64,000 nucleotides of DNA from Buxus sempervirens. Lineage: Eukaryota; Streptophyta; Magnoliopsida; Buxales; Buxaceae. Location of the stretch: NCBI GenBank assembly GCA_947561395.2, contig OX387186.1:43357220-43421219 (forward strand), in the 5' to 3' direction. Each line of letters starts with the position of its first letter. The first letter of the stretch is position 1. The notes beneath the pieces are model-generated. The model worked only from the letters and a program-made list of their open reading frames with translations. It had not been told where the DNA came from and made no database searches. Positions 10,694-54,610 of the stretch are shown piece by piece. A program made the position numbers and the translations under genes.

Positions 10694-11545
10694 TCAGCCC
10701 TGATTCAGCACAAAATTAAATTGATATAGTAAACGTACCATGCAATGTGCTTCTCTGAAATGCATATGACCATAAAGCACTACATCATCAGCAAACATAA
10801 GGTGTGACACAGCAGGACTACCAGGCTTTAATTTAATGCCCCTATACCTTCCATCAAGTTCTGCCCGGGTGATAGCCAAGCTAAGGACCTGTTGGCAGAG
10901 AATAAATAAATATGGGGAAAGGGGGTCTCCGGCATATGGGGAAAGGGGGTCTCCTTGCCGGAGACTCCTAGAAGGTTGAATTTTACCAATAGGAAACCCA
11001 TTAAGCATAATGCTATAAGATGCAGAAGAAACACAAGTCATGATAAGGTTAATGAACTGAGAATTAAAACCAAACTCTGAAAGAACAGATTTTAGAAAGG
11101 ACCAGCTAATCCGATCATATGCTTTAGAAAAATCTAGCTTTAATGCATACCACCCCTGGGGCTGTTTCTGCCTCCTTCTGGAAGTGTTAGAATTCCTTCT
11201 TTTCTTCTTTTCTGCTTTATGGAAAAAATGAGAAATCCCATGGTGGATGAGAATGTTATCTCTTATATGCCTTCCTGGAACAAAAGCAGTCTGATGAGGG
11301 GCAATTAGATTTCGCATCAATGGTCTAATGCGTGTGACCAATAATTTAGAAATTATCTTGTAAATGACATTGCAAAGGCTGATAGGCCTGTACTGACTCA
11401 ACTGTCGAGGGTTTTGAACTTTTGGTACTAACACTATAAATGTCTGATTAATATTATCAGGCAGTATACCTGTCTCAAAAAAAGCCTGAACAAACTTAGT
11501 TACCTTAGGGCCTACTATTTCCCAATATTTCTGATAAAAGACCAC
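10694..11545 (-). pseudogene. LINE reverse transcriptase with an internal 8-residue duplication
   Basis: RVT_1 motifs run in order: INQTFIVLVPKVQNP, QYRPISLCNVIYKIISK, QTAFVPGRHIRDNI, LKLDFSKAYDRISW (first Asp), SLRQGDPLSPY and LMFADDVVLYG (catalytic FADD). The conserved GDPLSPY appears twice in a row (QGDPLSPY, AGDPLSPY) because 24 bp are tandemly duplicated near 10911-10958. This lengthens a structural loop by eight residues without shifting the frame. Activity after such an insertion is doubtful. Confidence 0.9.
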
Positions 11546-11717
11546 AGGAAAGCCATCTGGTCTCGGCGCCTTGAATGGTGAAAGACTTCGGGCAGCTTCC
11601 CAAATCTCCTCAGCAGAAGGTATCCGAGATAGAATGGAATTTTGCGTATCAGAAATCTGTTGGAAAACTAAGAGAGACCTTTTATTAATTTTGGACTACA
11701 GAACACCACACCATACA

Positions 11718-12065
11718 CAGTCGATTTCCTCTACGAGGAAATCCTCTTTCGATTCGTCTTGGGAGCGCCGGGTGACGACACGCGTCCCACCCGGTCCCAC
11801 TCCTCATCATCAGTCCTCTTCGGCTCAGAGGAAATTGGCTGGCTCCGGTTTTTGAGCCAGCCAATTAAACACAAGTTAATTAAACATAGAACGTTGTGTT
11901 CATGCTTAGGTTCTAAAGTCAAACGATCTCGGCCATCCGATCTGCGTACTTTCCATCAACTTACAATCCTTGTGTTCATGGGCTCCCATGTTGGCTCCTA
12001 CTCTATAGATTTCACTTTTGTAGACGTGTAGGAAAGAGGTGTTTCAAGCTGTTTAATCACTTAGA

Positions 12066-12114
<49 letters not shown>

Positions 12115-12498
12115 ATATTTTGGTTGACTAAGGCTTTGAGAAGAAGCCTTGTCTCATGCTGAGCTTGAGCTTAATAATTAATTAAACTTGCAAGTGGAGT
12201 CTCATTTTTCATTTTTTTTTTTTAAAACTCATTTCCTTATCCTGATTGTTCGGAATTTGAGGGGACTGGACTTGGTTATTTTATTCTAGATAATATTTAT
12301 AATTGCACATTTTTGTAGTAAAAAAATAATGCCAATTGTTTTTTTTTATAAAAAACATTATCATTAACAAGTTTTTTTTTTATTTCCTTTTAATTAAGTT
12401 CATATATGCAATTATTTTAATCAACTTTGTAAATTTATAATTGCCCCAGTTAAATAAGCACAAAAAGGCAAATTTTTAGTAAGCAGGACAAGATCTAG
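11718..12498 (+). repeat. Left terminal inverted repeat of the foldback MULE (unique part)
   Basis: This segment is the reverse complement of 14209-14955 with only a few substitutions by eye. The main difference is a TA microsatellite, long here (12070-12111) and short in the partner. The first bases contain their own small inverted repeat (TTTCCTC, TACG, GAGGAAA), so even the very end can form a hairpin. Confidence 0.85.
12070..12111. repeat. (TA)n microsatellite in the left arm
   Basis: About 21 TA units here compare with about 7 at 14590-14603 in the mirror position of the right arm. The two arms have thus expanded or contracted independently since they became inverted copies. Confidence 0.9.
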
Positions 12499-13553
12499 TA
12501 ACCGGGGTTGTGAGGACTTGTAACAGTAGTTGTGAGGACTTGTAACTTGGCTTGTGAGGACTTGTAACAGGGGTTGTGAGGACTTGTAACAGGGGTTGTG
12601 AGGACTTGTAACTTGGCCTGTGAGGACTTGTAACAGTAGTTGTGAGGACGTGTAACAGGGGTTGTGAGGACTTGTAACAGGGGTTGTGAGGACTTGTAAC
12701 TTGGCTTGTGAGGACATGTAACAGGGGTTGTGAGGACTTGTAACCAGGGTTGTGAGGACTTGTAACAGGGGTTGTGAGGACTTGTAACTTGGCTTTGAGG
12801 ACTTGTAACAGGGGTTGTGAGGACTTGTAACAGTAGTTGTGAGGACTTGTAACTTGGCTTGTGAGGACTTGTAACAAGGGTTGTGAGGACTTGTAACAGG
12901 GGTTGTGAAGACTTGTAACAATAGTTGTGAGGACTTGTAACTTGGCTTGTGAGGACTTGTAACAGGGGTTGTGAGGACTTGTAACAGGGGTTGTGAGGAC
13001 TTGTAACCGGGGTTGTGAGGACTTGTAACAGGGGTTGTGAGGACTTGTAACTTGGCTTTAAGGACTCGTAACAGGGGTTGTGAGGACTTGTAACAGTAGT
13101 TGTGAGGACTTGTAACTTGTCTTGTGAGGACTTGTAACAGGGCTTGTGAGGACTTGTAACAGGCTTGTGAGGACTTGTAACTGGGGTTGTGAGGACTTGT
13201 AACCGGACTTGAGAGGACTTGTAACAGGGGTTGTGAGGACTTGTAACAGGGGTTGTGAGGACTTGTAACAGTAGTTGTGAGGACTTGTAACAGGGGTTGT
13301 GAGGACTTGTAACCGGGGTTGTGAGGACTTGTAACAGTAGTTGTGAGGACTTGTAACTTGGCTTGTGAGGACTTGTAACAGGGGTTGTGAGGACTTGTAA
13401 CAGGGGTTGTGAGGACTTGTAACAGTAGTTGTGAGGACTTGTAACTTGGCTTGTGAGGACTTGTAACAGGGGTTGTGAGGACTTGTAACAGGGGTTGTGA
13501 GGACTTGTAACTTGGCTTGTGAGGACTTGTAACAGGGGTTGTGAGGACTTGTA
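12499..13553 (+). repeat. 22-bp minisatellite array, left arm
   Basis: About 48 units of TTGTGAGGACTTGTAAC plus five variable bases fill this stretch. The variable part is mainly AGGGG, AGTAG or TTGGC. The variants recur in ordered blocks, suggesting duplication of multi-unit segments. A 22-bp unit shifts frame each time, so all minus-strand frames stay open and yield long but meaningless peptides (repeating LLQVLTTPVTSPHN and similar). Confidence 0.92.
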
Positions 13554-13571
13554 ATAATGCAATAGATGTAT
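13554..13571. other. Loop between the inverted minisatellite arrays
   Basis: AATGCAATAGATGTAT and a few flanking bases separate the two arrays. It is the only unpaired centre of the palindrome, short enough for cruciform or hairpin formation. Confidence 0.8.
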
Positions 13572-14208
13572 AAGTCCTCACAACCCCTGTTACAAGTCCT
13601 CACAAACCCTGTTACAAGTCCTCACAAGCCAAGTTACAAGTCCTCACAACTACTGTTACAAGTCCTCACAACCCCTGTTACAAGTCCTCACAAGCCAAGT
13701 TACAAGTCCTCACAACCCCTGTTACAAGTCCTCACAAGCCAAGTTACAAGTCCTCACAACCCCTGTTACAAGTCCTCACAACCCCTGTTACAAGTTCTCT
13801 CAAGTCCGGTTACAAGTCCTCACAACCCCAGTTACAAGTCCTCACAAGCCCTGTTACAAGTCCTCACAACCCCTGTTACAAGTCCTCACAACTACTGTTA
13901 CAAGTCCTCACAACCCCTGTTACAAGTCCTCAAAGCCAAGTTACAAGTCCTCACAACCCCTGTTACAAGTCCTCACAACCCCGGTTATAAGTCCTCACAA
14001 CCCCTGTTACAAGTTCTCACAAGCCAAGTTACAAGTCCTCACAACCCCTGTGACAAGTCCTCACAACTACTGTTACAAGTCCTCACAAGCCAAGTTACAA
14101 GTCCTCACAACCCCTGTTACAAGTCCTCACAACCCCTGTTACAAGTCCACACAAGCCAAGTTACAAGTCCTCACAACTACTGTTACAAGTCCTCACAACC
14201 CCGGTTAC
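13572..14208 (-). repeat. 22-bp minisatellite array, right arm
   Basis: This is the same repeat in inverted orientation, about 29 units (GTTACAAGTCCTCACAA plus variable bases). It is about 420 bp shorter than the left array, so the arms are asymmetric. The block order of variants at the outer end (next to 14208) mirrors the start of the left array. Confidence 0.92.
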
Positions 14209-14955
14209 TAGATCTTGTCCTGCTTACTAAAAATTTGCCTTTTTGTGCTTATTTAACTGGGGCAATTATAAATTTACAAAGTTGATTAAAATAATTGCAT
14301 ATATGAACTTAATGAAAAGAAAATAAAAAAAAACTTGTTAATGATAATGTTTTTTATAAAAAAAAACAATTGGCATTATTTTTTTACTACAAAAATGTGC
14401 AATTATAAATATTATCTAGAATAAAATAACCAAGTCCAGTCCCCTCAAATTCCGAACAATCAGGATAAGGAAATGAGTTTAAAAAAAAAAATGAAAAATG
14501 AGACTCCACTTGCAAGTTTAATTAATTATTAAGCTCAAGCTCAGCATGAGACAAGGCTTCTTCTCAAAGCCTTAGTCAACCAAAATATAGATATATATAT
14601 ATACAATTCTAAGTGATTAAACAGCTTGAAACACCTCTTTCCTACACGTCTACAAAAGTGAAATTTATAGAGTAGGAGCCAACATGGGAGCCCATGAACA
14701 CAAGGATTGTAAGTTGATGGAAAGTACGCAGATCGGATGGCCGAGATCGTTTGACTTTAGAACCTAAGCATGAACACAACGTTCTATGTTTAATTAACTT
14801 GTGTTTAATTGGCTGGCTCAAAAACCGGAGCCAGCCAATTTCCTCTGAGCCGAAGAGGACTGATGATGAGGAGTGGGACCGGGTGGGACGCGTGTCGTCA
14901 CCCGGCGCTCCCAAGACGAATCGAAAGAGGATTTCCTCGTAGAGGAAATCGACTG
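14209..14955 (-). repeat. Right terminal inverted repeat of the foldback MULE (unique part)
   Basis: Mirror copy of 11718-12498, ending ...GGAAATCGACTG directly before the duplicated CACCATACA. Differences from the left arm are few: the shorter TA run, a couple of substitutions near 14315-14330 and changes in A-run length. Confidence 0.85.
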
Positions 14956-14964
14956 CACCATACA

Positions 14965-15239
14965 CACAACACTTTTAGAAACGTCACTTACAGGGACTCA
15001 CCACACACCATTGACTCTTTCAACAACTGATTTAAAAAGAAACAAACTCCTACGTGGCCTGTAAATATGCCACACGACCCCACTACTCTTAACAAACCCC
15101 CCAATACGCATAACCAACAACCACATCACCACATCACTTCCAAAAATCTGGGTTACATACCAACCCACTAACACAACTTCACCAAACAAACTCATACGTG
15201 ATAAAAACTCATCCCTAAAACTTTGCATCACTTTTAACA
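14965..15239. other. Unexplained segment interrupting the LINE (with 11690-11717)
   Basis: Between the right duplication of the foldback MULE and the left duplication of the young copia lie about 275 bp of GT/AC-biased DNA. Together with about 30 bp at 11690-11717 it formed one roughly 300-bp stretch before those insertions. It does not read as LINE protein, although LINE sequence resumes on both outer sides. It may be an older insertion (MITE or solo fragment). I find no clear terminal repeat. Confidence 0.45.
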
Positions 15240-15244
15240 AAATC

Positions 15245-15591
15245 TGTTGGAGGAGGATGAAGAGAAAAGACATTCTCTTATTCTCAAGAGAGGACAACAA
15301 TAGAGGATAGAGACAAAAAACAATTGGTAAACCTCCAAGAGAAGTGTACGTCCACTTCTTCTCTTCAATTCTTTTTCCTTTCTTTCTTACTTCATACAAT
15401 AACACAATGACATTGACTATTTAAAGACAAAAGTAAATGACTAGTCAACATGACTTTTTCCAATACAAACAAACTCAAGGTCCCAATACAACTAACTTAA
15501 AGTCCCAACACTTTAATGCCTTTCCAAGAGATAAAACCTTTCCCAAGCTACTAATTCCAACACACAATAAATTAAGTTTACATTTTCAACA
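15245..15591 (-). repeat. 3' LTR of the young copia element
   Basis: 347 bp, TGTTGGAGGAGG at the left end and TTTTCAACA at the right. It matches 19686-20029 except for scattered changes and an extra TTC near 15359. A TATA-like run (TTTAAATAG on the minus strand, near 15418) is a candidate promoter element. Confidence 0.93.
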
Positions 15592-19685: not shown

Positions 19686-20029
19686 TGTTGGAGGAGGATG
19701 AAGAGAAAAGACTTTCTCTTATTCTCAAGAGAGGACAACAATAGAGGATAGAGACAAAACACAATTGGTAAACCTCCAAGAGAAGTGTACGTCCACTTCT
19801 CTTCAATTCTTTTTCTTTTCTTTCTTACTTCATACAATAACACAATGACATTGACTACTTAAAGACAAAAGTAAATGACTAGTCAACATGATTCTTTCCA
19901 ATACAAATAAACTCAAGGTCCCAATACAACTAACTTAAGGTCCCAACACTTTAATGCCTTTCCAAGATATAAAACCTTTCCCAAGCTACTAATTCCAACA
20001 CACAATAAATTAAGTTTACATTTTCAACA
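19686..20029 (-). repeat. 5' LTR of the young copia element
   Basis: 344 bp, the promoter-side LTR for the minus-strand element. About 97 percent identical to the 3' LTR by my hand count. Confidence 0.93.
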
Positions 20030-20034
20030 AAATC

Positions 20035-29227: not shown

Positions 29228-31209
29228 TTAGGCTTCCCTGTCTCCTCCATGTGCCTTTGAATTTTTATCTTGATCAGGACACTGTGAACTAGGCCTAGCA
29301 GAAGATGGGCGATAGTGATCCGACATCCCTGCTTCTTGAAGCATCTACACCATGCTAGGTGAACCTCTGTGCTAGTATGATCCCATGCCTATATTGGTAC
29401 CATATAAAAGGGAATGAAAATGGTGTAGTGGGATCTGTGTATGAAAAAAAAACCGAAGGTTAGTAGTAAGCAATAATACATTGGAGAAGGGTGCAAGAAT
29501 TACCCAAAACAAGTCATTGAATCACTAGACATACCATTGGACTGTTATGATAAGGAAACATGGGGTACGCTTCAGTTGATGGAAGAATGCCTGGCATTAA
29601 AAATTGAGTAGGTGGCACCATGTGCTGATCCCCATGAACCTCAATGTTTTGTGGGACCTGTGAAGTAAAAAGCCCAAAACATTCAATTAGCATTAAACTA
29701 TATCTAAGAGGGTTAATGAATTACTGAAAATGAAACATCAACCAAAATACTGCACCATTTGTCTGGATGGATCAGGAAATGTAGCACACGGTTCATTTGA
29801 CGAAGACAGCATAGATCTTGGTTGAGGAATCACAGGTGCTTGAGTACAACTTTATGGCACCATGTGCTTATCACCACTACTTTCATTATCTTTTTTTTGC
29901 CTTTTCTTTCGGATTGCTTGAGTCAAGTCATCGGCGGTTCTACGAACACTCATACCCACACGCTTGGATCTTTCCTTAACCTCGACTCCTTTTGCATTTT
30001 CTATTCGTTTTTGAGACATGGCTACATCTTCATTGATATTAATTGTATCAAACTGCTGCCCCCCCCCCCCCCCCCCCCCCCCCCAAATCTCCTGAGAGTC
30101 GTATGCTTGCTCATTTGCACAACTACCAACCTCCTCCACCACATCAATATTTGCCACATCATTAGTATGCTCATCAAAGAGGGGTCCTCCTTCATCATCA
30201 AACATCTTCTCCTTTTCACATGGTTCAATGTGCTCACTCTCATTATTACTTCCAATAGACTTTGGAAGCTCTTGAAAAATAGTTTCTTTGACAATCTTCT
30301 CCACTTCCTTAATTGTCTTTTCTGCTACTTGCATAACATAATCAGTTGCTTTTTGGCATGCAGCTGATTTAGATGCAAGTTGAATCAAAGATGAACATAC
30401 CAGGGAGTATCGCTTAGATATTTTACCAATCTCATTACATGCGCCTGAAGCATGTAGGGATGTGATCGAAACTAACAACATCACTAAAGTAACGATAATC
30501 CATGACCATCTGCCCAAAAAATGTTCGTGATCATATCATCCTCATCCATGTCAATGGCTTGAAAAAATGCCCTATCTTGGCAAAGTTTCTCCTGAAAATA
30601 AGATGCAAGTGCACCACTGTCTCCTTTTTGCATTCGTATCTTATTTTTTGTACGCAATTAATTACTATAATCTTCACGTACAAATCCTACATTTTCAATC
30701 CCACCAGCTTGTGTGCTCAAAAGTTCCATACCAGCTCTTGGAGTTAATCCATCACGCTTAACAATATCAACATGCGCTGTTATAGCAGGTGTAATTCTTC
30801 TTTGTGACCTTAACCAATGACTCATGCTTGTAGGAAGCATGTCATGGTTATGACTCAACTCCAAATCACTTATAAAGTACTTCCCATATTCATTCAATCG
30901 AACTTTAATAAAAGCCTTGCATCTACACCTTGTTTGTGATGCCGGCCTACTCCGAATTTCAGAAACCTTATTCCTAATCCCTTTTTTTGAACAAAAAAAT
31001 TTTTTCCAAATTATGCCGCCACCAACATTATGCTTCTCATTACCTTTGCGTACATTAAAACTAGCAATCTTAGCATATTCATTGTAAAATTCATACACCG
31101 AAATCAATGAATCAAATTTCATCCCCACTTTCAAAATAAACACCTCCTCAACATTAGGAACAACTCTAACCTCACCACCCACCTCATCGGCATTGTTTTC
31201 AGTTGCCAT
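29228..31209 (-). pseudogene. FAR1/FHY3-type MULE transposase with the catalytic core deleted
   Basis: The ATG at 31209 starts an acidic leader and a FAR1 DNA-binding domain (KFDSLISVYEFYNEYAKIAS, RCRCKAFIKV, LELSHNHDM). A TAA at 30658-30660 interrupts it. The following frame has LRTK, MQKGDSGALASYFQEKLCQD and DEDDMITNIFWAD; after a one-base slip, DYRYFSDVVSFD holds the first catalytic Asp. There the sequence jumps to the C-terminal tail (GACNEIGKISKRYSLVCSSL), so nearly all of the MULE catalytic domain and the SWIM finger are missing. Tail exons follow (about 29760-29835, 29537-29660, 29228-29440) and end with a Ser/Pro-rich C terminus at TAA (29228-29230). Confidence 0.82.
30059..30084. repeat. 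Poly(C) tract (26 bp)
   Basis: Twenty-six consecutive C on the plus strand encode eight Gly residues in the transposase tail (EIWGGGGG...). The minus strand is a G-run able to form quadruplex-like structures. Confidence 0.95.
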
Positions 31210-51108: not shown

Positions 51109-51299
51109 TGCTCAAGCTTTGGATCTGGTCACGGGAGCAATGATTGCAAGTATGTGTACCTGGAGAAGGAAAAGCAAAGAAACATATCAGCTCCCATTTA
51201 ATCCGAGTCACACACCTATAAATGTAAATAAGTGAGTTAGGTGAACACAAGTCCGGATTTATTTATTTATTTTTTATTTATTTTTTCTTTGATTGTTGG

Positions 51300-52572
51300 A
51301 ATATTTTAGGGCTTCCAAAGGTCCTTCAAAATTTTGGATTGATTGGTACGAAAAAGACCAACCAAGGTTTTATGGAATATTCTAGGGCTTCCAAGGTCCC
51401 ACAAAGTTTTGATTTGATTGGTACTAGTGATCAACCAAAGGTTTTTTTTGAATATTCTAGGGCTTCCAAAGGTCCCACAAAGTTTTGATTTGATTGGTAC
51501 TAGTGACCAACCAAAGGTTTTTTTGGAATATTCTAGGGCTTCCAAGGTCCGACAAAATTTTGATTTGATTGGTACTAGTGACCAACCAAATGTTTTTTTG
51601 GAATATTCTAGGGCTTCCAAAGGTCCCACAGAGTTTTGATTTGATTGGTACTAGTGATCAACCAAAGGTTTTTTTGGAATATTCTAGGGCTTCCAAGGTC
51701 CTACAAAATTTTGATTTGATTGGTACTAGTGACCAACCAAATGTTTTTTTGGAATATTCTAGGGCTTCCAAAGGTCCCATAGAGTTTTGATTTGATTGGT
51801 ACTGGTGACCAACCAAAGGTTTTTTAGAATATTCTAGGGTGTCCAAAGGTCCCACAAAGTTTTGATTTGATTGGTACTGGTGACCAACCAAAGGTTTTTT
51901 GGAATATTCTAGGACGTCCAAAGGTCCCACAAAGTTTTGATTTGATTGGTACTGGTGACCAACCAAAGGTTTTTTGGAATATTCTAGGACGTCCAAAGGT
52001 CCCACAAAGTTTTGATTTGATTGGTACTGGTGACCAACCAAAGGTTTTTTGGAATATTCTAGGACGTCCAAAGGTCCCACAAAGTTTTGATTTGATTGGT
52101 ACTGGTGACCAACCAAAGGTTTTTTTGGAATATTCTAGGGCTTTCAAAGGTCCCACAAAGTTTTGATTTGATTGGTACTAGTGACCAACCAAAGGTTTTT
52201 TTGGAATATTCTAGGGCTTCCAAGGTCCCACAAAGTTTTGATTTGATTGGTACTAGTGACCAACCAAAGGTTTTTTTGGAATATTCTAGGGCTTTCAAAG
52301 GTCCCACAAAGTTTTGATTTGATTGGTACTAGTGACCAACCAAAGGTTTTTTTGGAATATTCTAGGGCTTCCAAGGTCGCACAAAGTTTTGATTTGATTG
52401 GTACTGGTGACCAACCAAAGGTTTTTTGGAATATCCTAGGGCTTCCAAGGTCCCACAAAATTTTGATTTGATTGGTACTGTTGACCAACCAAAGGTTTTT
52501 TGGAATATTCTAGGGCTTCCAAGGTCCCACAAAGTTTTGATTTGATTGGTACTGGTGACCAACCAAAGGGAT
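51300..52572 (-). repeat. Tandem repeat of about 75 bp, 17 copies, in the gypsy leader
   Basis: Each unit contains TTGATTTGATTGGTACT, then GACCAACCAAAGGTTTTTT, GGAATATTCTAGG and GGTCCCACAAAG. I count 17 occurrences of GATTGGTAC. Length varies by one to two bases, so frames wander and long but artificial open stretches appear on both strands. It lies between primer-binding site and gag, where Ogre-like elements often carry satellites. Two sub-types (ACTAGTGACC and ACTGGTGACC) are arranged in blocks. Confidence 0.93.
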
Positions 52573-54610
52573 TTTTTTCTTATATTTATATTTTTTTTAT
52601 TTTTTTATTTTTTAGATTTGCTGAATTTCCTCAGTTTTTAAGTTCAAAACTTTGATCGAAACATGTTTGAGATGAATTGGCATCAAGAAATATGACACAT
52701 TGGTTCCCTTTTTATGTATCTTCCTTAAGCTTGAGGAAAAAAATAGATTTGTGTTTGAAGATCAAGTTAAATCTTTTGAACACTTGAATTATCTTTTCAT
52801 ACTCTCCTTGGGGTGCCTAAGGATTATTCACAATGTTTTAGGCATTTTATTCTCAAAAAATTGGGATGAAAAATCAATTTATGCATTTCTGGACTGTATC
52901 CGATATATCAGGTCGGCTAAAGCTATGCCTTATTGTATCCAATGCAAATGATCGGATACATACATATAACCTCTTTGCCGATGACATGTGTCTGATAAGA
53001 AAGGAATGTTGTTTAACCGATCTAAGTTGTCGGTTAATGCCGAATTGGCCTTTTTTGACTCATTTTTTCACTAGATCATGTTTTTTTTCATTTCCACTTA
53101 ATGTTCACCTTGACTTGGCCTCTAAAAATAGTCTCCAATTGGACTTTGACACCATACTTGCAAAATACATGAATATTCATGAGGGTACATGCCCCTTCCA
53201 CAGTTAGACACCAATTCATGGATCTTGTGCTCTTGGTTGCCTCCTACATGGACTTTGGGTAAAATGACTTCTAAATTGAGTTAAAAACTCTTCCTATAGG
53301 TTACACCAACCTTAGGCTACAAACACTTTTGGGAAAAATTTCATTCCAAATATATGGACACCATGGCTTTTAATTTACATGAAGGTAAAAAAAAATCATG
53401 GTTTTACCTTGCTACCTTGTGTTATCTTCAATATGGTATTCATATTATACATTGGCCTGTGAAACATGCAAACGGCCTTCCCACAATTACACCCAATTCC
53501 CCAAACATAATTGTTTACTTTAGCTGAAAACGTGTTTCTCCACCTTCAAGCGTATGGTTTTTGGGTTTTGGCTTAATTGGCAACTTAGAACTCAAGTCTA
53601 GTGATGCCCGGAATCGAATCACAGATCCCATTGTCATCACATCATTGACTCAAATTCTAAGGTAAATGTTTTCACTTTCGCTTTTCGAAGTATCGACCTC
53701 GTTGCGTCAAGCTACACACATTCGGGTTCAACTTCCTATAGGTAATGGGTAGGCTGTGCAAAGAGTTTAAAGTGCTTAAGTGCATTTAAAATTAAATGTG
53801 CATTCACAACGCCCCAGCCCCTTGCCACTCTTTTCTTAGTCATGCATACAATTTCAAGCCAAGGCAATATGATATTATATTGAAAGCAAAAACACAAGCA
53901 AGCAAGGTAGTAAAAACAACTCAATATGCACATAATTACTACATACTCAAAAGGCATCACACAGGCATGGTATCATATTGTACAAAACCATTAAATCATG
54001 AAAAACATGCTTGAAACCAAAAGCATCTCCTAAATTTCCAGATTTCATGCTCTTTTTTCATGCTCAAAGTGCATTATTCCTGCCCAAATTGAAGCCTAAA
54101 AACACAGCAACTAGACATTTTGTACAAGGAGCATTTAACCGGAGAAAACATGTTTGAAAACCCCTCAAAACATCTACTGAATTCTGGGTTTCATGGTTCT
54201 CATTTTCATGCTCAAAGCATCATTCATACCCCAAATTGAAGCCTAAAATATAGCAACTAACAATTTGGTACAAGAGGTATTTTAATTAGGGGAAACATGC
54301 TTGAAAATCTCCAAAATACCTACTGAATTTACTAAGTTTCATGCTCTTCCTTTTCATGCTCAAAACATGGCACTAAACCCCCAAAGCAAAGTTTAAAAAT
54401 ACAACAAGTAAACATGTACACCAAGATAAGGCCATAAACATGATTCTAGGCATAATCAAACAATACACTCATGCCATTATCCTTATGAATTTTCTAGTCA
54501 GACAAAACAGATTTGAAACATATCAACATGCACCCATAAAATAGGCAAAACAGCAAGTAAACAAAGAAAAAACATGAACAAATACACCAATCATGGCTTA
54601 AATCCACAAG
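52573..54610 (-). other. Gypsy untranslated leader between tandem repeat and primer-binding site
   Basis: No coding motif. A segment at 52890-52970 repeats the words TGTATCCGAT, TTGTATCCAATG and ATCGGATACA also seen in the LTR at 56.87-57.02 kb. Around 54010-54370 three similar blocks (CATGCTTGAAA..., CATGTTTGAAAA..., CATGCTTGAAAA... followed by TCATG-CTC-TTTTCATGCTCAAA) form a diverged repeat of about 135-150 bp. Confidence 0.55.

What the first reader, a model, noticed from the sequence alone, without database searches (positions are those of the whole stretch)
11718..14955. Foldback MULE built from inverted arrays of a 22-bp minisatellite
The element has a 9-bp target duplication (CACCATACA), arms that match almost perfectly, and an inner part made entirely of opposed 22-bp repeats around a loop of about 20 bp. 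I know foldback MULEs and tandem-repeat MULEs, but one whose stem is largely minisatellite is unusual. A read-through transcript would form a stem of more than 1 kb, an obvious source of small RNAs of nearly one sequence. The arms differ mainly in array length (about 48 versus 29 units) and in a TA run, so repeat turnover outpaces base change.
Basis: partly seen in the sequence, partly recalled or inferred. Interest (0 to 1): 0.85.

Follow-up and report, generated by a model that had tools for sequence, protein, structure and literature searches.

The report
Hairpin jumping gene with minisatellite arms
A plant DNA transposon that is one long near-perfect hairpin, half of it short tandem repeats, sits here as one copy of a genome-wide family; it belongs to a known kind (foldback Mutator-like elements), but its copies suggest that the two arms of a hairpin repeatedly copy one another.

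Summary
Window 11718-14955 is a 3,238-bp palindrome with an exact 9-bp target duplication (CACCATACA). Outside the arrays its arms differ by 3 substitutions in 747 aligned bases. Inverted arrays of a 22-bp unit (about 48 and 29 copies) make up 52% of it. It sits in a solo LTR; 11 other fetched copies of that LTR lack it, and one shows a near-identical empty target.

The genome holds a family: 18 of 21 two-ended members examined have exact 9-bp duplications. The 19-bp loop is the edge of a roughly 907-bp middle domain that other members keep, so this palindrome looks like a deletion derivative that then spread. One element with related ends encloses an open 840-aa FAR1-MULE-SWIM frame of a multi-copy gene, which supports Mutator (Jittery-like) membership.

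Repeat order is collinear in 11 of 15 within-element array pairs, against 52 of 420 between elements. In six elements, derived substitutions are shared by both arms (14 sites) and never by one side alone, though 41 are private to one arm. So arms seem to copy each other while array length drifts. One member is a palindrome of palindromes.

Foldback MULEs with tandem-repeat arms are known (Tm1). This is a well-resolved new member, not a new kind. Small-RNA output was not testable.

The parts
11709..11717 (.). left target-site duplication CACCATACA
11718..12497 (+). left arm outside the array (terminal inverted repeat); its first 153 nt hold nested short hairpins (z -8 as single-stranded DNA) and it carries the longer TA run (12070-12118)
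12498..13554 (+). left 22-bp minisatellite array, 48.2 copies, consensus GTAACAGGGGTTGTGAGGACTT
13556..13574 (+). 19-bp loop AATGCAATAGATGTATAAG, identical to the edge of the middle domain (904-909 bp where full) kept in other members
13572..14208 (-). right 22-bp array, 29.0 copies, opposite orientation, unit order collinear with the left array
14209..14955 (-). right arm outside the array
14956..14964 (.). right target-site duplication CACCATACA
11658..15239 (.). host of the insertion: solo LTR (335 bp without the insert: 11658-11717 plus 14965-15239; TGTTGG...TTAACA) flanked by AAATC at 11653-11657 and 15240-15244; paired copies about 4.5 kb apart elsewhere in the genome show it to be an LTR

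Best explanation
It is a non-autonomous foldback element of the Mutator-like (MULE) superfamily. Shown: ends shared with a genome-wide family, 9-bp target duplication, empty site, no open frame of 120 aa or more other than those running through the arrays, loop identical to the edge of a middle domain kept by sister copies, arms collinear in repeat order. Inferred: a FAR1-MULE-SWIM transposase made by related full elements cuts and pastes it in trans by binding the ends (perhaps the 22-bp units too). A deletion of the middle domain turned a TIR-array-middle-array-TIR element into a near-perfect palindrome, which then spread. Inside each copy, break repair between the two arms (gene conversion, or re-copying of one arm on the other) keeps sequence and repeat order alike from time to time, while slippage or unequal exchange changes the unit number on each side.
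For: Exact 9-bp duplications in 18 of 21 two-ended members. Empty site with one CACCATgCA in the closest of 11 fetched LTR relatives, none of the 11 with the insertion (26 other matches were listed). Frames in the element. Loop identical in the window, L009, L010, L011a, L011b, L012, L013 and L020, and equal to the edge of the middle domain of L014, L029, L049, L050 and L051. C1:58837108 element: ends 87-88% like the window's over about 145 bp and 97% like L018's, left and right ends 95% alike over 190 bp, around an open 840-aa frame with FAR1, MULE and SWIM domains; that gene has 40 scored copies at 85-100% identity, some partial (468 candidates). Within-element array collinearity: 11 of 15 pairs at z>=4 against 52 of 420 between elements (Fisher p 2e-7, descriptive only because pairs share arrays). 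In six elements, mean divergence is 0.012 within an element, 0.022 between elements on the same side and 0.022 on opposite sides; 14 derived sites are shared by both arms of one element or clade, none by one side alone.
Against: Only one transposase-bearing element with family ends was identified; its target duplication is imperfect (1 mismatch, 5-bp offset), its ends are 12-13% diverged from the window's, and no 22-bp array was found in it (last 0.3 kb not scanned). L020 lacks a duplication, L029 has one only with a 5-bp offset, and L021 has one mismatch. Array collinearity is absent in L010, L012 and one of three L027 pairs, and weak in L018. In L009, L013, L015 and L016 at least one arm is nearer to another element than to its own partner. 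41 variable sites are private to a single arm and 5 shared sites are mixed. A second group of four elements gave no clear side test. Transposition itself was not observed.
Confidence: 0.85

Rival explanations
1. The arms are alike not because of ongoing arm-to-arm conversion but because each palindrome was formed afresh from one arm (inverted duplication at a break or during transposition), so each copy starts with identical arms.
For: L011 is an inverted dimer: its left outer array matches its right outer array (z 14.7) and the two inner arrays match (z 9.3), more than arrays within each half (z 4.2, 4.5), the two halves carry the loop in opposite orientation, and one 9-bp duplication flanks the whole.
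Against: The 19-bp loop is the same in the window, L009, L010, L011a, L011b, L012, L013 and L020, so these palindromes most simply descend from one deletion event and were not formed separately; still, both arms carry the same derived sites.
Confidence: 0.25
2. Assembly artefact: an inverted duplication made by a chimeric or fold-back read.
For: Long near-perfect palindromes are a known form of assembly and library error (general knowledge).
Against: Arms differ by 19 units and by substitutions; exact 9-bp duplication; an empty site in a sister LTR; the same structure at other loci with different flanks.
Confidence: 0.02
3. A DNA transposon of another superfamily (hAT, CACTA, PIF/Harbinger, or P-like as Galileo) with foldback form.
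For: Foldback form evolves in several superfamilies; Galileo is P-like (abstract). The CA...TG ends are not the usual G...C of many MULEs (recalled).
Against: 9-bp duplications rather than 8, 3 or 7 (recalled lengths); a FAR1-MULE-SWIM frame between family ends.
Confidence: 0.07
4. The 22-bp arrays are passengers: an ordinary minisatellite inside the element with no part in its movement or repair.
For: Arrays vary in length, number and orientation (L018 and L024 reversed; L027 has three; L015 and L019 one), so no fixed layout is needed; L026, with a transposase frame, shows no array.
Against: In the members with the shared loop and both ends found, arrays lie in both arms between the family's ends; unit order is kept in register between arms in most elements tested.
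Confidence: 0.3

Closest known systems
Tm1 (Meloidogyne; Mutator/Foldback family, PMC3169594; passages read)
   Same: Composite long terminal repeats built of a short tandem unit (about 14 bp) in varying number; mostly 9-bp target duplications without consensus; transposase in some members; nested insertions.
   Different: Animal host; shorter unit; terminal motifs asymmetric. Here the arms with arrays are about 1.4 and 1.8 kb, the unit is 22 bp, and the middle domain is reduced to a 19-bp loop.
FARE1 and other plant foldbacks (Windsor and Waddell 2000; paper not held; known here only through passages of PMC4486113, and recall)
   Same: Plant foldback with long palindromic repeats at both ends, classed with MULEs.
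Drosophila FB (recalled) and Tetris (PMC4079207; passages read)
   Same: Tetris: long terminal repeats with internal tandem repeats, variable middle domain, 8-10 bp duplications, non-autonomous, tandem repeats amplify.
   Different: Tetris repeats are called TIR-220, about ten times longer; its transposase source is unknown; host is an insect.
Galileo (P-element superfamily; PMC3573991; abstract start, passages)
   Same: Different numbers of tandem repeats in the two ends of one copy; ends lengthened by recruiting internal sequence; exchange and conversion among copies proposed; tandem repeats may bind transposase.
   Different: Different superfamily; no near-perfect whole-element palindrome with a deleted middle in the passages seen.
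Jittery/FAR1-type MULEs (group 36 of PMC6446971; passages read)
   Same: FAR1 N-terminal and SWIM (or CCHC) C-terminal domains around the MULE domain, as in the L026 frame.
   Different: Listed terminal repeats 39-292 bp or none for the plant sub-group; no minisatellite arms in the passages seen.

Membership tests
Mutator-like elements (MULE) | target duplication of about 9 bp | tested here: met
   window exact; 18 of 21 two-ended members exact, L021 one mismatch, L020 none, L029 only with a 5-bp offset
Mutator-like elements (MULE) | long terminal inverted repeats | tested here: met
   arms about 780 and 747 bp outside arrays, 3 substitutions; longer than the 14-500 bp surveyed in PMC6446971
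Mutator-like elements (MULE) | relative with the same ends that encodes a MULE transposase | tested here: met
   met by one element only (C1:58837108): ends 87-88% like the window's over about 145 bp, open FAR1-MULE-SWIM frame, imperfect target duplication
Mutator-like elements (MULE) | mobilisation by that transposase | not testable with these tools
   needs a transposition assay
Foldback (FB-type) elements | nearly the whole element folds on itself; ends internally tandem-repeated | tested here: met
   1,370 cross-arm pairs in 3,238 nt; 52% arrays
Foldback (FB-type) elements | variable or missing middle domain | tested here: met
   904-909-bp middle domain in L014, L050, L051, extended in L029, shortened in L049; 19-bp remnant in the window
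Foldback (FB-type) elements | unequal repeat numbers in the two arms | tested here: met
   about 48 against 29 here; unequal in 12 of 12 two-array elements
hAT / CACTA / PIF-Harbinger | 8-, 2-3- or 3-bp target duplication (lengths recalled) | tested here: not met
   9 bp in 18 of 21
source of hairpin small RNAs | 21-24-nt reads mapping to the stem | not testable with these tools
   no RNA data held

The most novel reading that the evidence does not exclude
The family is a natural record of palindrome-templated copying: near-perfect multi-kb palindromes with a 19-bp loop survive and transpose in a plant genome, the two arms re-copy each other so that even a shuffled 22-bp repeat order stays in register, and the same process yields palindromes of palindromes (L011). 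The minisatellite would then be the pairing module that makes arm-to-arm repair and copy-number growth efficient, rather than a passenger.
Probability: 0.3. Interest if true: 0.6.

Novelty: new member of a known kind. Interest (0 to 1): 0.42.

Why it matters
The ordered variants of the 22-bp unit act as a barcode. They let one read, copy by copy, whether the two arms of a hairpin transposon evolve separately or copy each other, which is hard to see where arms are simply identical. The family also joins deletion derivatives, middle-domain members, hybrids, an inverted dimer and a candidate transposase source in one genome, which makes models of foldback formation testable. Stems of more than 1 kb are also candidates for hairpin small-RNA loci.

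Tried and rejected
Rejected: assembly artefact (see rivals); a coding role for the arrays (open frames of up to 392 aa run through them, but the unit of 22 bp is no multiple of 3 and several frames on one strand are open at once; no protein test was made). Giant members on C4 (32.6 kb) and C14 (23.4 kb) were looked at as possible transposase sources. In the 17 frames from their fetched stretches that I sent to Pfam (9, 8; one of them, L025:9204-9899, lies mostly outside the element) I saw retroelement domains and, in C14, a plant-mobile-domain gene in two frames, but no MULE domain; other shorter frames were not sent, and about 3.5 kb of the C4 element was not fetched. The plant-mobile-domain frame gave no relatives. 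The host species was not identified: relatives of two window proteins come from many plants, mostly eudicots. Scans of viral contigs for the end and for the array found nothing. Rfam gave no match at gathering score in the window. A search with the ends of the transposase-bearing element did not complete, so how many copies of the transposase gene carry these ends is open.

Dropped before counts: the side test used 6 units (window, L009, L011a, L011b, L012, L013). L010 (left end truncated), L019 and L027 (right ends of another type) and L020 (no duplication, right end of another type) were left out. A second group of 4 (L014, L049, L050, L051) was run in the same call; one L014 arm there was mis-cut or diverged (0.207) and that group gave no clear result. 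One search used 30 arrays from 16 elements; arrays of L022-L025, L028-L030 and L032-L034 were not used, and L049-L051 were fetched later. It made 40 shuffles per pair. One search left out gapped columns and states held by more than 6 of the 12 arms. Loci with one end only (L026 within its first stretch, L028, L031-L034) and L010 were not counted for duplications.

Full report
What is there. The window lies in a genome of 676.5 Mb (G000:C8:43357220-43421219), a plant judging by its retroelement relatives. At 11718-14955 stands a 3,238-bp palindrome with identical ends CAGTCGATTTCC and an exact 9-bp duplication CACCATACA on both sides. Outside the arrays the two arms differ by 3 substitutions in 747 aligned bases and by a TA run and two T runs. 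The inner 1.7 kb is two opposed arrays of a 22-bp unit, 48.2 and 29.0 copies, around a 19-bp loop. Folded as one RNA strand it forms 1,370 cross-arm pairs. The first 153 nt of the left arm also hold short nested hairpins (z -8).

Where it sits. Its flanks form a 335-bp sequence TGTTGG...TTAACA between AAATC duplicates. A search of the genome finds 27 matches to the right part, several as pairs about 4.5 kb apart, so it is an LTR, and here a solo LTR. Of the 26 other matches, 11 were fetched; none of the 11 has the palindrome, and the closest (L039, 91%) has a single CACCATgCA at the site. The solo LTR and the neighbouring copia element (LTRs 15245-15591 and 19686-20029, 96.5%) lie beside a LINE reverse-transcriptase frame (10697-11695); by eye from the translations the frame seems to resume beyond the copia element.

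The family. The 343-bp end gives 45 matches from 40 scored candidates of 219, and 263 bp of array gives 291 matches from 40 scored of 320; both are lower bounds. I fetched 28 regions, 3 more and 1. Of 21 members with both ends identified, 18 have exact 9-bp duplications, L021 has one mismatch, L020 has none, and L029 has one only if its left end is moved by 5 bp. Arrays vary: reversed in L018 and L024 among others, three in L027, one in L015 and L019. Two giant members on C4 and C14 keep 9-bp duplications although they contain retroelements.

Origin of the palindrome. L014, L050 and L051 carry a middle domain of 904-909 bp between the arrays, 98-99% alike, and L049 and L029 carry shortened or extended forms. 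Nine loci, L014, L029, L050 and L051 among them, match its full or nearly full length (40 of 160 candidates scored). The loop of the window is the first 19 bp of that domain, and the same loop is found without mismatch in L009, L010, L011 (twice), L012, L013 and L020. The simplest reading is one deletion of the middle domain, which made a near-perfect palindrome that then moved to at least six further loci. Four of these six have exact 9-bp duplications; L020 has none and L010 has a truncated end.

How the arms evolve. I split arrays into units and aligned unit order. In the window the two arrays score 50.4 against a maximum of 45.6 in 500 shuffles, with rare variants in the same order. Over 30 arrays of 16 elements, 11 of 15 within-element pairs reach z>=4 and 52 of 420 between-element pairs do (Fisher p 2e-7, descriptive because pairs share arrays). 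L010, L012 and one of the three L027 pairs show no collinearity and L018 is weak (3.8). Oriented by the loop, six elements show the same divergence between elements on the same side (0.0224) and on opposite sides (0.0222), and less within an element (0.0121). Of the variable sites counted, 7 derived states are private to both arms of one element and 7 to all arms of a clade (L012+L013, L009+window, L011a+L011b); one more is shared by all arms of L009 and L011; none is shared by one side only; 41 are private to one arm and 5 are mixed. In a wider set, own arms are nearest in the window, L012, L014, L018 and L021, but at least one arm is nearer to another element in L009, L013, L015 and L016. 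I read this as intermittent arm-to-arm copying.

Palindrome of palindromes. L011 holds two palindromes 21 bp apart with one outer duplication TCATATTTT. The outer arrays match each other (z 14.7) and the inner ones each other (z 9.3), better than arrays within either half (4.2, 4.5); the loops point opposite ways; the first half aligns better to the reverse complement of the second (97.9%) than to the second as it stands (96.4%). It is an inverted dimer.

Transposase source. A search with the MULE domain scored 150 of 1,051 candidates. One hit lies inside L026: its left end (509) and right end (about 10,210 in L026+L052) match family ends, 87-88% to the window's and 97% to L018's, and 95% to each other over 190 bp. 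Between them is an open 840-aa frame with FAR1, MULE and SWIM domains. The gene has 40 scored copies at 85-100% identity, some partial (468 candidates), which fits a mobile gene rather than a single host gene. Its target duplication is imperfect, with one mismatch and a 5-bp offset, and no 22-bp array was found in it, so I call it a candidate source only. FAR1 plus SWIM is the make-up listed for the plant Jittery group (PMC6446971, passages).

Comparison with what is known. Tm1 combines a Mutator-type transposase, 9-bp duplications and tandem-repeat ends (PMC3169594, passages). Most foldbacks are said to belong to Mutator (PMC4079207, passages). Unequal repeat numbers in the two ends, and exchange and conversion among copies, are described for Galileo (PMC3573991, passages). 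MuTAnT and FARE are plant examples (PMC4486113, passages; the FARE paper is not held). So the kind is known. What I did not see in the passages read is a near-perfect multi-kb palindrome with a traceable middle-domain deletion, repeat-order evidence of arm copying, and an inverted dimer. The searches that could have shown such reports were (listings and starts of abstracts), which cover open-licence papers alone.

Noticed in passing
window 11653-11657, 15240-15244, 20030-20034: Three AAATC copies: a solo LTR and a full copia element sit side by side sharing the middle AAATC, next to a LINE frame. Either a second insertion hit the duplication of the first or recombination joined them.
   Followed up: partly
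L011 402-6216: Inverted dimer of two foldback palindromes with a 21-bp spacer and one outer 9-bp duplication.
   Followed up: yes
L025 2442-3930 (minus strand), inside the 23.4-kb C14 member: Plant mobile domain (PF10536/PF24924) gene in two overlapping frames within a family member; PMD in antisense is listed for some plant MULEs.
   Followed up: partly
L014 2282-3190 and relatives: Part of the middle domain (query 633-889) recurs at other loci, several as inverted pairs about 2 kb apart, as if recruited into the arms of another subfamily.
   Followed up: no
L019 and L027 right ends: Right ends 98% alike over the outer 150 bp but only 77% like their own left ends: hybrid elements with two end types.
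   Followed up: partly
window 51296-52578: A 75-bp tandem array of about 17 copies, with no match to the element in the window self-comparison.
   Followed up: no
window 30059-30084: A run of 26 C.
   Followed up: no
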